Origin: Streptococcus parasanguinis | Lineage (GTDB): Bacteria; Bacillota; Bacilli; Lactobacillales; Streptococcaceae | Reading direction: 5' to 3' | Length of the DNA: 8,038 bases | Assembly: GCF_901875555.1 (NCBI RefSeq) | Contig: NZ_CABFMD010000018.1 | Coordinates: forward strand, 1-8,038 | In this document: one piece after another, positions 1 to 6,837 of the stretch | How positions within the stretch are numbered: position 1 is the first letter of the stretch | Layout of the letters: each line of letters opens with the position of its first letter | Position numbers and translations under genes: made by a program | Notes under the pieces: generated by a model | What the model was told of the DNA's origin: nothing | What the model saw: only the letters and a program-made list of their open reading frames with translations | Databases searched by the model: none

Positions 1-215
1 CCATCGCTCAAGCCACCTACGACGGACAACAATTGGGAATTAAAAAAGGGGTTAAACAGGGGATTGAACAGGGAATTGAAAAAGGAATTCAAAAATCTAA
101 AACGGAGATGGCAAAAGCCATGTTAAAAGACAAACTGGATATTTCCTTTATCGCCAAATACACTGGCTTAACCAAACAAGAACTCCAACAACTTACCCAA
201 ACTACTCACATATAA
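1..215 (+). CDS. C-terminal fragment of Rpn-family (PD-(D/E)XK) nuclease/transposase-like protein, 5' end outside window
   Basis: The frame is open from the left edge (first whole codon at 3) to TAA at 213-215, so this is the 3' end of a longer gene. A TTG at 33 is in frame, but the frame continues upstream of it, so I do not treat it as the start. What is visible is an ATYDGQQ stretch, five four-residue GIxK/GIxQ units, and a C-terminal tail with a small helical segment (ISFIAKYTGLTKQELQQL). This tail is typical of Rpn-family recombination-promoting nuclease/putative transposase proteins, which commonly end in G-rich charged repeats followed by a 'IAKATGLS..EI..L' motif. The catalytic nuclease domain would lie upstream and is not in the window, so function and intactness cannot be judged. 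It converges on the sortase gene, with a shared hairpin between them. Family assignment is by recognition only. Confidence 0.7.
   Translation, partial: IAQATYDGQQLGIKKGVKQGIEQGIEKGIQKSKTEMAKAMLKDKLDISFIAKYTGLTKQELQQLTQTTHI
36..95 (+). repeat. five imperfect 12-nt in-frame tandem units (GIxK repeat)
   Basis: Five consecutive 12-nt units encode GIKK, GVKQ, GIEQ, GIEK and GIQK. The unit starts GGA/GGG ATT/GTT and ends in AA-rich codons. Such repeats in the tail of Rpn-like proteins can expand or contract by slippage. Confidence 0.8.
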
Positions 216-249
216 CAAAAAGGCCTAGCACTGCTAAGCCTTTATTTTT
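213..249. terminator. bidirectional terminator between the Rpn-like gene and the sortase gene
   Basis: An inverted repeat at 220-229 and 233-242 (AAGGCCTAGC / GCTAAGCCTT) has a 3-nt loop. It pairs fully on the minus strand with one G-U pair and has one C-A mismatch on the plus strand. A T-rich run follows on both sides: TTTATTTTTTTATT on plus, TTTTTGTTATA on minus. It lies between converging genes, so it can end both transcripts. Confidence 0.8.
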
Positions 250-1098
250 TTATTGTTGGCCACGTGTTGCCACATATTTCAATTGATCAGCATGTTTTGC
301 CACAAAATCCTTCATTTCTGAATCAGGAATTTGACGAAGGTAGAGGTTAGAACGAATGGTTTCATCCTCTTCACGACAAGTTGACAATACTAAATACTTA
401 TCAGTCGCTTTGATCTTCATATTAGGATTCTTCGTACGAGCTGACTCATAGATATTCTTCAACTGAGTGGTGAAATCTTTATCATCAGTAAAGCTTGTAC
501 GATAGAAAGCAGTGTCCTCAGGGACAATGACCAAGCCCATCGCTTCATAGTAGTATTTCCGCTCTGGTGTCTCAATCACGACATACGGATGTTGATCAAA
601 ATACTCTTGTTTGTCATAGTAGTTGACATCGTTAAACATGCGGTGGTCGCCGACCTTACTACCACGAGCATGACCAAATAGCCATGTCAAACGATCACTG
701 AAGTCTTTCTTGTTATCCATATCCATGAAGACTGTTCCCATGTATGGCTCATTCCCACCATCAAACGTCTTATTCAAATAAGTTTCATTATCTGTAGTTT
801 GTACAACAGGTTCATCCAACTCAGTACCTGGTGCGTAGACATAAGCAATTGCTTCAGGGTTAACAGCTGTTAACTGAGCAAAACGATTTTTCAAGTAATC
901 TTTTTCTTCTTGACTAGGTTCATATTTGGCTGCTTGCTTGGTTGAACTTGTTCCAGTTGTCTTTTTTGCCGTGCTAGATGACTTACTTCCTCCAAAAGGA
1001 TTAAAGAAAATAAATCCAGCAACAAGCACAACAACTGCAACAAGAGCAGCAATCACAAGGCCCAATTTAGTTGAACTTTTTTCCCCAGCTCTTTTCAT
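250..1098 (-). CDS. srtB: class B-type sortase, membrane-anchored transpeptidase
   Basis: The 282-residue protein has a short basic N-terminus, one membrane segment (about residues 12-33), an S/T/K-rich linker (38-58) and a sortase domain (about 65-275). Catalytic residues can be placed as His143 in FGHAR, Cys241 in the LSTC motif (237-241), and Arg249 eight residues after the Cys, the usual sortase spacing. The NPEAIAYVYAPGT opening, the GTVFMD strand and the long stretch between His and Cys fit class B sortases, so the extracytoplasmic catalytic domain should cleave a sorting motif and join the Thr to an amino group. The ATG at 1098 has GAGGAG nine bases upstream (1108-1113). The gene lies downstream of a secreted protein ending in LPKTSAAK, its most likely substrate. 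No promoter fits between the upstream terminator and this start, so expression probably depends on read-through. The gene symbol reflects class; orthology to a named SrtB is not proven. Confidence 0.9.
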   Translation of the reverse strand: MKRAGEKSSTKLGLVIAALVAVVVLVAGFIFFNPFGGSKSSSTAKKTTGTSSTKQAAKYEPSQEEKDYLKNRFAQLTAVNPEAIAYVYAPGTELDEPVVQTTDNETYLNKTFDGGNEPYMGTVFMDMDNKKDFSDRLTWLFGHARGSKVGDHRMFNDVNYYDKQEYFDQHPYVVIETPERKYYYEAMGLVIVPEDTAFYRTSFTDDKDFTTQLKNIYESARTKNPNMKIKATDKYLVLSTCREEDETIRSNLYLRQIPDSEMKDFVAKHADQLKYVATRGQQ

Positions 1099-1127
1099 TC
1101 AATTGATCTCCTCTTGATGATTTTTTC

Positions 1128-1159
1128 TAAAAAATAACACTGAACCCGAAGGTCCAGTG
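1128..1159 (-). terminator. UUCG-loop intrinsic terminator (possible attenuator) between substrate and sortase genes
   Basis: On the minus strand CACTGGACC pairs with GGTTCAGTG (1151-1159 with 1138-1146, one G-U pair) around a stable TTCG loop. TTATTTTTTAG follows at 1137-1128. It lies 28 bases after the substrate stop codon. The sortase ribosome binding site starts 14 bases beyond the T-run, so some transcripts must pass it if the genes share a promoter. Confidence 0.85.
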
Positions 1160-1187
1160 ATATTTTACGAGCTAATTAATAATCAAA

Positions 1188-1889
1188 TTATTTAGCTGCG
1201 CTTGTTTTTGGAAGAGCTTTACCAGCTTGAGCTGATGATGCTTTACCATCTTTAGCTGCTTTAGCCACTTTTTCAGTTTTTTGAGCTTCTGATTTAGCTT
1301 CTGATTTAGTTTGGTTGTTGTCAGAAGCTTTTACTTCTTTAGAGTTTGTGTTGATTGTTGCAGCACGGTCATCCAATTTGTATGGAAGTGTTACTGAACC
1401 GTTAGTGTACATATCAGCAGTAACTGTTACTGAACCAGTAGCTGTTACAAGTTCTTTAAAGTCTGTAGCAGTAGTACCTACACGGTATTCTACAACTTCA
1501 CCTTGGTTGAACAAACGTGGAGCTTCAGCATCACCACTTTGGTCAGTTACAGCAGAACCAATTGCAAAACCATTCAACATAAAGTCAATAGTTGCACCTG
1601 GAACTGGGCGTCCACCACCATCAAGAACAGTTACACGAACATGTTTGTTTGTATCAGCTGTTTTCACAGTGATTGGGCCATTTGTTTTACCAGAGATAAC
1701 AGCTTCAGAAGTAGCGCCAAAACGGTTGTTGTCACCTTTGTCTGTTTCAGCAGCTGGTGTTTTAACTTCTGATTTAAGACGTCCATCTGGTGTGTAAGCT
1801 CCAAATGTATCTGGACCTGTTGCAAATGCTGGTGCTGCTGCTGCAAATACTGCAAGAGCTGCTACTGATGATAATAAAACTTTTTTCAT
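1188..1889 (-). CDS. secreted Ig-like-domain protein ending in an LPKTS motif, probable sortase B substrate
   Basis: The 233-residue protein has a clear signal peptide (MKK, hydrophobic 4-20, likely cleavage after AFA at 21-23). A beta-rich middle region (about 82-170) carries VTVLDGGGRPVPGATIDF and a TDQSGDA turn, like bacterial Ig-like or carboxypeptidase-regulatory-like folds. A K/A/S/E-rich low-complexity tail (about 184-225) follows, ending in LPKTSAAK (226-233). LPKTS resembles a sortase motif, but no hydrophobic segment or basic tail follows. Only 28 bases separate the stop from the terminator stem, and I see no lost anchor in other frames. There is no cysteine. The start at ATG 1889 has AAGGAGA (1897-1903) seven bases upstream and a near-consensus promoter. 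The sortase gene follows directly. It could be a non-canonical sortase substrate or a freely secreted surface-associated protein. I do not recognise a named homologue. Confidence 0.9.
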   Translation of the reverse strand: MKKVLLSSVAALAVFAAAAPAFATGPDTFGAYTPDGRLKSEVKTPAAETDKGDNNRFGATSEAVISGKTNGPITVKTADTNKHVRVTVLDGGGRPVPGATIDFMLNGFAIGSAVTDQSGDAEAPRLFNQGEVVEYRVGTTATDFKELVTATGSVTVTADMYTNGSVTLPYKLDDRAATINTNSKEVKASDNNQTKSEAKSEAQKTEKVAKAAKDGKASSAQAGKALPKTSAAK

Positions 1890-1942: not shown

Positions 1943-1954
1943 CTAGTATACTAG
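1943..1954. promoter_or_regulatory. perfect 12-bp palindrome over the -10 box (operator candidate)
   Basis: CTAGTATACTAG is self-complementary and contains the whole -10 hexamer. A dimeric repressor could bind here, or the symmetry may be chance from TATACT plus flanking TAG. No regulator is encoded in the window. Confidence 0.35.
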
Positions 1955-1973
1955 GATATTCTTCCCATGTCAA
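1945..1973 (-). promoter_or_regulatory. near-consensus sigma-A promoter of the secreted substrate gene
   Basis: The -35 box TTGACA (1968-1973, perfect) and -10 box TATACT (1945-1950, one mismatch) are separated by exactly 17 bases. A/T tracts upstream (about 1977-2005) resemble an UP element. The start would fall near 1938, giving a leader of about 49 bases. This is the strongest promoter I can see in the window. Confidence 0.9.
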
Positions 1974-2062: not shown

Positions 2063-2203
2063 CTATTTTACCACTTCATTTTTAGGTAATCGTTTCTTGG
2101 GCAAACTAGGATCCGCCTTTGCTTCTAATTCTTTAGCTGCTTGAACCAATTTTTTTCGTTTCTTTTCTTTTTTTAGATCTTTCAACCATTTAACAATTTC
2201 CAT
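2063..2203 (-). CDS. small highly basic protein of 46 residues, unknown function
   Basis: ATG at 2203 to TAG at 2063-2065. The start has AGGAG seven bases upstream (2211-2215), which is good evidence of translation. The product begins MEIVKWLKDLKKEKKRKK, continues with an alanine/glutamate helix (about 20-30), then PSLPKKRLPKNEVVK. It is very lysine-rich, has no cysteine, signal peptide or membrane segment, and is probably a charged helical cytoplasmic protein. The ribosome binding site abuts the T-run of the prs terminator, so it is likely expressed by read-through from prs. It precedes the promoter of the secreted substrate gene but is not obviously in that operon. I do not recognise a family. 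Confidence 0.75.
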   Translation of the reverse strand: MEIVKWLKDLKKEKKRKKLVQAAKELEAKADPSLPKKRLPKNEVVK

Positions 2204-2215
2204 ATATTTTCTCCT

Positions 2216-5242: not shown

Positions 5243-6061
5243 CTACTCTCCAATCAATAGTACATAACGATTGACATCTAAATTAGCCTTTGGTTTCACA
5301 CGAATTTCTTGTCCTAACTGATCAGATGCCTTTTGAGTAGAAGTCACCGTACCAAGAGGTAAGTCACTACTCTTGTATTTTCCTAAGCCACTTGTTGAAA
5401 CGAGTGATCCTTTTTTAATTTCAATTGGATCTCCAATTTGCAACAACCGAAACTCACCCGTCTTCTCGTCATAACCATTTAATAAAGCAAAAATAGATTG
5501 ACCTTGACTCTCAATTTTAAACGTCAGGTGTTGTGATGAAATAGTATCTTCGACTAATAATTTCACTTTACTAGAATGCTTCTCTATACTTTCTACCACA
5601 CCAATGACACCACCAGATGAAAGAACAAACATGGAATCAGAAATTCCATCCGAACCACCCTTATCAATAACAAATTCCTGATCCCAAGAACCGTAATTAC
5701 GGTCAATAATCTCACTAACAATTTGTTTAGAACCAGACACAGAATTTTTGATAGCCAACAAATCTTTTAATTCTCTATTTTCTGATTCCAAACGACTAAG
5801 TTTTGACTGGTCAATATCCTTTTCATAAAGACGTGATTTCAAGGAGCGGTTTTCATCATTCAATTCAGATAAATTTTTTAAATCTTTTGCCTTAGATTCC
5901 ACAAGAACAAATGGTACCGATACCACCTTATCAACCATAGCTAATAGATCAGAAGATTTTAAAACAATCGAAGTTCTAACAGATGGAAAAAGAAATAAAA
6001 TTCCTGAAACAGTTAAAACAAATACAAAACTAAAAATTTTAAAAAAACGATTCAAGAACAT
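5243..6061 (-). CDS. mreC: MreC, cell-shape/elongation scaffold protein
   Basis: MreC is a single-pass membrane protein that organises peripheral cell-wall synthesis with MreD, RodZ and PBPs. From ATG 6061 the product has 272 residues: a short N-terminus, a membrane helix (about 8-26), a coiled coil (about 55-105, LNDENRSLKSRL and LESENRELKDLL) and the beta-domain pair (about 110-270) with the family segment RNYGSWDQEFVIDKGGSDGI. I chose ATG 6061 because GAAGG lies eight bases upstream (6070-6074). The longer reading from TTG 6109 would start inside the terminator hairpin of the tRNA operon and adds 16 unlikely residues. The gene lies 62 bases after the last tRNA, with no room for a separate promoter beyond the terminator. 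mreD follows after one base. Confidence 0.95.
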   Translation of the reverse strand: MFLNRFFKIFSFVFVLTVSGILFLFPSVRTSIVLKSSDLLAMVDKVVSVPFVLVESKAKDLKNLSELNDENRSLKSRLYEKDIDQSKLSRLESENRELKDLLAIKNSVSGSKQIVSEIIDRNYGSWDQEFVIDKGGSDGISDSMFVLSSGGVIGVVESIEKHSSKVKLLVEDTISSQHLTFKIESQGQSIFALLNGYDEKTGEFRLLQIGDPIEIKKGSLVSTSGLGKYKSSDLPLGTVTSTQKASDQLGQEIRVKPKANLDVNRYVLLIGE

Positions 6062-6080
6062 AGACAAAACCTTCAAAAAT

Positions 6081-6111
6081 ATAAAAAATAGTTTGAGATA
6101 ACATCTCAAAC
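6081..6111 (-). terminator. terminator-like hairpin at the end of the rRNA-tRNA operon
   Basis: A perfect 9-bp stem GTTTGAGAT / ATCTCAAAC (6111-6103 with 6099-6091) with a 3-base loop is followed by TATTTTTTAT (6090-6081). The stem is AT-rich and the T-run starts one base late, so it is probably leaky. The mreC Shine-Dalgarno lies seven bases downstream. Confidence 0.8.
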
Positions 6112-6123
6112 TTCGAAATTATA

Positions 6124-6211
6124 CGGAGAATGGGGGATTCGAACCCCCGCGCCAGTTACCCGACCTAACGATTTAGCAAACCGTCCTCTTCAGCCTCTTG
6201 AGTAATTCTCC
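6124..6211 (-). tRNA. tRNA-Ser(GCU)
   Basis: Class II tRNA with a long variable arm. The anticodon loop TTGCTAA reads codons AGU/AGC. The acceptor GGAGAAT/ATTCTCC is perfect, discriminator G. No encoded CCA. Last gene of the cluster. Confidence 0.95.
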
Positions 6212-6215
6212 AAAA

Positions 6216-6289
<74 letters not shown>

Positions 6290-6324
6290 AAGTTAAAAAC
6301 TTGGTAAATTGAACAATCGTTCAA

Positions 6325-6395
6325 AGCGGGTGACGAGAATCGAACTCGCGACAACAGCTTGGAAGGCTGTAGTTTTACCACTAAACTACACCCGC
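6325..6395 (-). tRNA. tRNA-Gly(UCC)
   Basis: Anticodon loop CTTCCAA, acceptor GCGGGTG, short D loop typical of tRNA-Gly, discriminator U. CCA not encoded. Confidence 0.95.
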
Positions 6396-6411
6396 TTATT
6401 ACTAAAAGGAA

Positions 6412-6484
6412 TGGCGCGAGACGGAATCGAACCGCCGACACATGGAGCTTCAATCCATTGCTCTACCAACTGAGCTACCGAGCC
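6412..6484 (-). tRNA. tRNA-Phe(GAA)
   Basis: Anticodon loop TTGAAGC, discriminator A, TTCGATT T loop. The acceptor GGCTCGG/TCGCGCC has one U-C mismatch at pair 4-69; all other stems pair well. CCA not encoded. Confidence 0.93.
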
Positions 6485-6487
6485 AAA

Positions 6488-6561
<74 letters not shown>

Positions 6562-6573
6562 ATAATATAAATA

Positions 6574-6663
6574 AGGAGGATGTGGGATTCGAACCCACGC
6601 ACGCTTTTACACGCCTGACGGTTTTCAAGACCGTTCCCTTCAGCCGGACTTGGGTAATCCTCC
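6574..6663 (-). tRNA. tRNA-Ser(UGA)
   Basis: Class II tRNA with a long variable arm. The anticodon loop CTTGAAA reads UCN codons. Acceptor GGAGGAT/ATCCTCC is perfect. The discriminator base reads U, where serine tRNAs normally have G. CCA not encoded. Confidence 0.94.
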
Positions 6664-6673
6664 AAGATAATAA

Positions 6674-6747
6674 TGGACCTTGTAGGACTTGAACCTACGA
6701 CCACTCGGTTATGAGCCGAGAGCTCTAACCAGCTGAGCTAAAGGTCC
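6674..6747 (-). tRNA. tRNA-Ile2(CAU), lysidine type
   Basis: The anticodon reads CAU (loop CTCATAA), so it could be called Met. The acceptor GGACCTT with C4-G69 and C5-G68 matches the TilS substrate pattern and, as I recall, the Bacillus tRNA-Ile2. The neighbouring order Met, Ile2, Ser, fMet also agrees. TilS would turn C34 into lysidine to read AUA. Confidence 0.78.
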
Positions 6748-6763
6748 GACAAGATCAACAATA

Positions 6764-6837
6764 TAGCGGCGAAGGGGATCGAACCCCCGACCTCCCGGGT
6801 ATGAACCGGACGCTCTAGCCAGCTGAGCTACACCGCC
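6764..6837 (-). tRNA. elongator tRNA-Met(CAU)
   Basis: Anticodon loop TTCATAC. Acceptor GGCGGTG with a G1-U72 pair, discriminator A, as in Bacillus elongator tRNA-Met. It differs clearly from the other two CAU tRNAs nearby. CCA not encoded. Confidence 0.92.

What the first reader, a model, noticed from the sequence alone, without database searches (positions are those of the whole stretch)
250..1889. Two-gene unit: class B-type sortase with a dedicated secreted partner
A secreted single-Ig-domain protein whose last residues are LPKTSAAK lies directly upstream of a complete class B-type sortase (His143, Cys241, Arg249), on the same strand and downstream of one strong promoter. Sortase genes beside their substrate usually form dedicated pairs, so this may be a small private surface-display or release system, separate from housekeeping SrtA.
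Basis: partly seen in the sequence, partly recalled or inferred. Interest (0 to 1): 0.75.

Follow-up and report, generated by a model that had tools for sequence, protein, structure and literature searches.

The report
One sortase, swappable display protein
In DNA closely matching mouth streptococci, an anchoring enzyme of a known kind sits beside a surface protein whose export and anchoring ends resemble those of close relatives while its middle shows no similarity to theirs, so the enzyme likely displays interchangeable proteins on the cell.

Summary
Confirmed, on the minus strand: a secreted protein (1889-1188) ending LPKTSAAK lies 89 bases before a class B sortase (1098-250). The pair belongs to a known kind, the abpA-srtB locus of oral streptococci; the sortase scores 469.6 bits (cut-off 200) on NCBI's LPKTxAVK-specific model. 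The partner is not AbpA (52 of 150 bits, mainly the signal peptide). Its middle is a predicted CnaB-like beta domain instead of AbpA's amylase-binding helices. Close relatives share 91-94% DNA on both sides, but the roughly 500 bases between align to three AbpA-type relatives no better than shuffled DNA. In three sets, sortases identical over their last 225 residues sit beside unrelated middles; 97 partners form 25 clusters. A homologous domain occurs in choline-binding proteins of streptococci where the sortase was not found. A terminator-like hairpin lies between the genes in 93 of 97 loci. Of 284 Streptococcus genomes, 94 hold sortase and tail, 14 the sortase without the tail pattern, 1 a tail match alone (no stop codon, false). 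Best reading: one dedicated sortase with exchangeable passengers, a new variant of a known kind. Anchoring and ligand here are untested.

The parts
1945..1973 (-). promoter-like site TTGACA-17-TATACT (11 of 12)
   Evidence: the 1979-1890 segment is 98-100% identical in ten of 16 compared relatives and 90-92% in the other six
1188..1889 (-). secreted substrate gene, 233 aa
   Evidence: homologues with the same layout
1821..1889 (-). signal peptide (residues 1-23), the conserved 5' end of the exchange
   Evidence: 90-99% DNA identity to 16 compared loci; best stretch of the AbpA model NF040523 is residues 2-33
1644..1820 (-). N-terminal spacer (residues 24-82), itself variable among relatives that share the core
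   Evidence: spacer 32-97% identical among the tailed homologues printed; core 84-100% in those from P0003 to P0054
1380..1643 (-). passenger core (residues 83-170), predicted CnaB/transthyretin-like beta domain
1191..1379 (-). linker and conserved tail; LPKTSAAK is residues 226-233 (1214-1191)
   Evidence: cut between T and S is inferred from AbpA (PMC4974636)
1138..1159 (-). terminator-like hairpin between substrate and sortase
   Evidence: 93 of 97 intergenic regions against 33 of 485 shuffled; 91.8% of cells paired, 5 pairs with changes on both sides
250..1098 (-). class B sortase, LPKTxAVK-specific type (His143, Cys241, Arg249)
219..243 (-). terminator-like hairpin after srtB (11 pairs)

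Best explanation
This is an abpA-srtB-type locus in which the sortase is predicted to cut the upstream secreted protein at LPKT|SAAK and link it to the cell wall, and in which the displayed middle, a predicted CnaB-like beta domain, likely replaced AbpA's amylase-binding helices by recombination between the conserved ends. Shown here: sortase family, tail, gene order, tight pairing across genomes, conserved flanks with an unrelated middle, identical sortases beside unrelated middles, and a conserved hairpin between the genes. Inferred: the anchoring chemistry (from published work on AbpA), the exchange by homologous recombination through the promoter/signal-peptide block on one side and the tail/srtB block on the other (direction of replacement not known), and the role of the hairpin in making much substrate and little enzyme. 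The ligand of the beta domain is unknown; my leading guess is a host salivary or mucosal protein, possibly amylase.
For: Sortase: NF040525 469.6 bits against 200. Pairing: 94 of 108 SrtB genomes hold the tail, 1 false match in 176 others; by reading frame, an adjacent substrate in 96 of 117 loci, gaps 31-188 bp. Exchange: window against L001, L002, L004, L005 aligns at 91-94% from 217 to 1300-1313 and from 1820 or 1829 to beyond 6240, with no BLASTN match between; by module against L001: promoter block 100%, signal peptide 96%, core 48% of aligned letters, tail 81%, intergenic 99%, srtB 94%. Core DNA against L001, L002, L004 is 44.9, 44.0, 47.2%, with maxima of ten shuffles each of 46.6, 47.3, 47.3%; against L102, which has the same kind of core, 74.4%. 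Sortases identical over their last 225 residues occur with different cores in three sets: L002/L101/L105 (c00) with L102 (c05), L007 (c06) with L008 (c02), L133 (c02) with L140 (c06). The last two sets give both passengers (c02, c06) in each of two sortase backgrounds, 84% and 61% identical to the window's: all four combinations. 97 substrates fall into 25 core clusters. AbpA model, cut-off 150: L001 246.8, L003 218.9, L020 169.4 bits but window 52.4, L006 40.4, L007 44.2, L008 45.3, L010 57.0, P0032 51.5, L018 and L044 no match. Hairpin. Homologous core on choline-binding proteins.
Against: The tail is AAK, not AVK, and scores 18.9 bits, just under the NF040524 cut-off of 20; AAK was not tested in what I read of the 2016 paper. 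Core clusters are by single-linkage BLASTP on short, partly low-complexity sequences and 17 of 25 are single members, so 25 is not a count of folds. The sortase tree is a quick one with 34 of 84 inner branches weak; the identical-sortase sets do not depend on it. 14 of 108 sortase genomes lack the tail pattern. All 8 loci named S. sanguinis (and 4 unnamed ones) share one core cluster, so exchange is not equally active everywhere, and core labels follow the sortase tree more than shuffles do (35 changes against 54.0). No recombination event was dated or watched. Only the CnaB-like core has a usable structure model; that of another core (A3) was poor (mean pLDDT 44.5).
Confidence: 0.8

Rival explanations
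1. An ordinary AbpA-SrtB pair: the partner is a fast-diverged AbpA that still folds as helices and binds amylase.
For: Same signal peptide, tail and locus; a published survey calls AbpA subgroup 5, in which S. parasanguinis predominates, the most diverse (PMC5399409, passages).
Against: AbpA model 52.4 of 150 bits, best stretch residues 2-33; Pfam AbpA-like 13.2 of 27 bits, residues 181-233 only; beta model; core DNA at shuffled level while flanks are 91-94%, which divergence by mutation of the core alone would hardly give.
Confidence: 0.07
2. A release system: SrtB cuts the tail and frees the protein into the medium, with little anchoring.
For: No hydrophobic segment follows the motif; AbpA is found both in the supernatant and on the wall (PMC4974636).
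Against: Without srtB, AbpA is absent from the wall, and GFP with AbpA's signal peptide and tail appears on the wall as well as in the medium (PMC4974636). The window tail is within the natural range: LPKTSAAK in 8 of 96 loci, LPKTHAAK in 14.
Confidence: 0.06
3. An assembly chimera: the unusual middle was joined to abpA-srtB flanks by mis-assembly of a mixed sample.
For: The window's own genome is not held, and many homologues come from short contigs.
Against: The same layout (75% identical protein, same kind of signal peptide and tail, srtB next to it) lies on a 2.13 Mb contig in G236/L102. Tailed homologues number 89 of the 120 listed.
Confidence: 0.03
4. The middle was not exchanged in these lineages: several paralogous substrates existed and different ones were lost.
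For: L003 has a second secreted ORF with a similar signal peptide just upstream of its substrate, and L010 shows a repeat of the substrate's start beside an assembly gap.
Against: The pattern finds one tail per genome in 45 of 48 genomes and none in 3; in 284 genomes only G183 has two, the second reading FPKTSACK about 0.5 Mb from srtB. Promoter block and tail stay near-identical across different cores, which paralogues would not keep without exchange.
Confidence: 0.04

Closest known systems
AbpA-SrtB of S. parasanguinis and S. gordonii (PMC4974636)
   Same: Gene order, signal peptide, KALPKTSAxK tail, sortase (89% identical to several named S. parasanguinis; 96% in L002, named S. parasanguinis)
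   Different: AbpA's middle is mainly a helical coiled coil that binds amylase; here it is a predicted beta domain with no detected sequence relation. AbpA tail AVK, here AAK
AbpA-like subgroups 1-5 (PMC5399409, passages seen)
   Same: That paper already describes a conserved signal sequence, a variable region and a tail LP(K/N)T(S/A/H) plus A(V/A)K, and infers horizontal transfer of the locus
   Different: It models a representative of each subgroup with a mainly helical N-terminal half; cores unrelated to AbpA in otherwise near-identical loci are not in the passages I saw
Choline-binding proteins with a homologous core (P0055 and kin; L170, L171, L172)
   Same: MKKVLL-type signal peptide and a VRVTVVDGGGRPVP core, 57-65% identical in the five printed
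   Different: Choline-binding repeats in place of the LPKT tail; the three genomes read are not among the 143 with a match to the sortase model
Class B sortases of S. aureus and S. pneumoniae
   Same: Family by sequence (for solved class B sortases) and, by the paper's account, similar active sites
   Different: Their SrtB cannot replace the oral streptococcal SrtB (PMC4974636)
CnaB domains of pilins and adhesins
   Different: About 10-16% identity in those rows; stabilising isopeptide bond not tested

Membership tests
LPKTxAVK-specific class B sortase (NF040525) | score above curated cut-off 200 bits | tested here: met
   469.6 bits, residues 21-279 to profile positions 4-261 of 261
LPKTxAVK-specific class B sortase (NF040525) | catalytic His, Cys, Arg | tested here: met
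   GHARG His143, STCRE Cys241, TIRSN Arg249; their roles are recalled from sortase B
LPKTxAVK-specific class B sortase (NF040525) | cleaves and anchors its partner in the cell | not testable with these tools
   shown for AbpA in PMC4974636, not for this protein
AbpA (NF040523) | whole-length score of 150 bits | tested here: not met
   52.4 bits in two stretches, the best at residues 2-33
AbpA (NF040523) | helical amylase-binding domain | tested here: not met
   beta strands only in the confident part of the model; Pfam PF22224 13.2 of 27 bits; amylase binding itself not testable
LPKTxAVK-anchored surface protein (NF040524) | tail score of 20 bits | tested here: not met
   18.9 bits, the tail being AAK and not AVK; 8 of 96 loci carry LPKTSAAK
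CnaB-like domain | fold | tested here: met
CnaB-like domain | intramolecular isopeptide bond | not tested
   lysines in and near the core are only K76, K82, K145 and K171; bond geometry was not examined
Choline-binding protein | choline-binding repeats (PF01473) | tested here: not met
   no match in the window protein at E up to 1

The most novel reading that the evidence does not exclude
Oral streptococci and Gemella keep one exchangeable display slot: a fixed promoter, signal peptide, tail, attenuating hairpin and private sortase into which competence-driven recombination drops unrelated passenger domains; homologous passengers are also carried by choline-binding proteins in species without the sortase, so binding domains move between two anchoring chemistries. 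AbpA and its amylase binding would be only one of many passengers, and the window's beta domain another, perhaps an amylase binder like the 36-kDa AbpC with its reported homology to choline-binding proteins.
Probability: 0.5. Interest if true: 0.7.

Novelty: new variant of a known kind. Interest (0 to 1): 0.5.

Why it matters
It recasts a published one-adhesin system as a general display slot. It predicts that many strains carrying srtB do not bind amylase through this locus, names passengers to test, gives a short tail found on unrelated proteins, and points to a conserved hairpin that could set the substrate-to-enzyme ratio. It also widens the range: a sortase over the family cut-off with an adjacent tailed protein occurs in an S. 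suis genome (L048), and the pair in other streptococci and the two genes apart in Gemella, whereas a 2025 review speaks of a lack of evidence for such a system in S. suis (PMC12650345, passages).

Tried and rejected
A typical LPXTG signal was rejected: no hydrophobic segment or charged tail follows the motif. A phage origin of the substrate: tblastn found no match in the phage collection. A second passenger model (L006 with L011) had mean pLDDT 44.5, so no fold is claimed and no fold search was run on it. A tRNA-Ser call inside the substrate gene (1492-1587) has no Rfam match at gathering score and was set aside. The Rpn fragment beside srtB as the agent of exchange was set aside: among the loci held its 70-residue piece matched only L048 and L169.

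Literature searched for passenger exchange at this locus: 10 of 12 listed; 12 of 4,727 listed; in those listings I saw no paper bearing on it beyond PMC4974636 and PMC5399409. Only open-licence papers are held, so this is no proof of absence. PMC5399409, PMC12650345 and PMC8112260 were seen as passages only.

Selections: the hairpin alignment used the window plus 49 of the 70 distinct intergenic regions; I left out near-duplicates and distant species whose hairpins have unrelated sequence, which flatters the pairing figures; the count used all 97. In one search two measures do not favour the structure: further pair types (160 of 500 shuffles as high), and a slide of -1 gives 31 cells changed on both sides against 29. 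The structure alignment A1 used the window protein plus 53 of the 120 listed homologues. One search used 56 sequences: the window's sortase and those at least 75% identical to it.

Full report
What is there. On the minus strand the window holds a 233-residue secreted protein (1889-1188) and, 89 bases on, a 282-residue class B sortase (1098-250). A promoter-like site lies at 1973-1945 and terminator-like hairpins lie between the genes (1159-1138) and after srtB (243-219). Upstream lie prs, pcsB, mreD, mreC and a tRNA/5S cluster. The nearest loci found are from Streptococcus, several named S. parasanguinis.

The sortase. It exceeds the curated cut-off for 'class B sortase, LPKTxAVK-specific' (469.6 against 200 bits) and for class B sortases, matches solved class B sortases by sequence, and has the expected His, Cys and Arg. 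The founding paper (PMC4974636, parts 1-3 of 6 read) shows for AbpA that SrtB, not SrtA, places it on the wall, that the tail KAGKALPKTSAVK with AbpA's signal peptide brings GFP to the wall, that SrtB cuts between T and S, and that it forms a ladder of AbpA.

The exchange. Against L001, L002, L004 and L005 the window aligns at 91-94% from 217 to 1300-1313 and from 1820 or 1829 onward, with no BLASTN match between. The 5' break falls at the signal-peptide boundary (residue 23), the 3' break inside the linker before the tail. The core of L001, L002 and L004 is at shuffled level (44.0-47.2%, maxima of ten shuffles 46.6-47.3%), while L102, a genome with the same kind of core, gives 74.4%. Sixteen loci were compared by module; the segment upstream of the promoter varies more (78-86% in most, 70% in L103, 46% in L003 and L101, 13% in L010); L003 has an extra gene there and L010 an assembly gap.

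How general. Of 117 sortase loci examined (48, 69, four of them second copies), 96 have an adjacent substrate with an LPxT-type tail. The 21 without are five Gemella loci, L029, two with apparently interrupted frames (L042, L126), two with variant tails LPNTCVLPE and LPNTSALPE (L143, L151), and 11 with none found near, three of which are second copies. Ninety-six substrates plus the window's give 25 clusters by core. On a quick sortase tree the core label changes at least 35 times (24 is the least possible; shuffled mean 54.0, as low in 0 of 200), so cores follow descent in part but switch often. Three sets of sortases identical over their last 225 residues carry different cores. Two of these sets, L007/L008 and L133/L140, lie in sortase backgrounds 84% and 61% identical to the window's and each holds both passengers c06 and c02: all four combinations, the classical mark of exchange. 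Among 56 sortases at least 75% identical to the window's (itself included), 10 pairs are identical over 225 residues, of which 6 share a core cluster and 4 do not.

Co-occurrence. Of 284 Streptococcus genomes, 108 have the sortase over cut-off and 95 a tail match: both 94, sortase only 14, tail only 1 (false, no stop codon), neither 175. Of the 14, G270, G271 and G272 have LPKTSVAK beside srtB and G062 and G175 the variant tails about 380 bp upstream; for the other nine no tail was seen in the fetched stretch. The pattern finds one tail per genome in 45 of the 48 first genomes and none in 3.

The hairpin. A terminator-like hairpin is found in 93 of 97 intergenic regions, against 33 of 485 mononucleotide shuffles. 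On 50 aligned regions 91.8% of cells pair (slid structures 32-43%) and five pairs show changes on both sides, 0 of 500 shuffles reaching either; pair types do not stand out (160 of 500), and a slide of -1 gives as many doubly changed cells (31 against 29). In distant species the hairpin has another sequence but the same place. Co-transcription of abpA and srtB is reported for S. gordonii (PMC12650345, passages). I infer that the hairpin lets only part of transcription pass, giving much substrate and little enzyme.

A second anchoring route. Of the 120 homologues of the partner listed (of 684), 89 end in the tail, 29 carry choline-binding repeats and 2 neither, by simple motif tests. The choline-binding ones have a similar signal peptide and a 57-65% identical core in the five printed. 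Three such genes were read in G239, G146 and G275, genomes not among the 143 with a match to the sortase model. So homologous domains are worn on two kinds of anchor. One amylase-binding protein, AbpC of S. mitis, is described as a 36-kDa protein with homology to choline-binding proteins (PMC8112260 and PMC5399409, passages); whether it has this core I could not test.

Verdict. The finding is real and its interpretation right, but the pair belongs to a published system. What is new here, as far as the listings show, is that the displayed part is an exchangeable passenger and that this window carries a predicted beta-domain passenger with homologues on choline-binding proteins.

Noticed in passing
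window 3-215 (+): C-terminal piece resembling Rpn-family recombination-promoting nucleases (42.3 bits, cut-off 52.1), convergent with srtB; alignments to the five nearest loci stop at 217, so it is not at this place there.
   Followed up: partly
window 2063-2206 (-): Small 47-residue basic ORF between prs and the substrate gene; a similar reading lies at that place in L001 and L010.
   Followed up: no
L048 (S. suis strain 614), substrate 5289-5879, sortase match 6001-6780: Sortase over the NF040525 cut-off with an adjacent LPKTSAAK substrate, although a 2025 review speaks of a lack of evidence for such a system in S. suis.
   Followed up: partly
L034, L035, L037, L041, L047 (Gemella): The sortase stands without a tailed neighbour; four of the five have a lipobox-like N-terminus (VSGC or VAGC), and a tailed protein, found in three of the five genomes, lies elsewhere.
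   Followed up: partly
L029 (S. massiliensis): prs is followed directly by the sortase with no substrate, and no tail pattern occurs in the genome: an apparently empty slot.
   Followed up: partly
L042 and L126: Substrate reading frames look interrupted although the tail and the sortase remain.
   Followed up: no
L003 4392-5066: A second secreted protein with a similar signal peptide but no LPKT tail, just upstream of the substrate.
   Followed up: no
G038, G043, G045, G125 (L165, L164, L163, L166): Genomes with a second sortase of the same family over the cut-off; of these second copies only L165 has a tailed protein (LPKTSVAK) beside it in the fetched stretch.
   Followed up: partly
window 1492-1587 (-): ARAGORN calls a tRNA-Ser inside the substrate core; Rfam does not support it, probably spurious.
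   Followed up: yes
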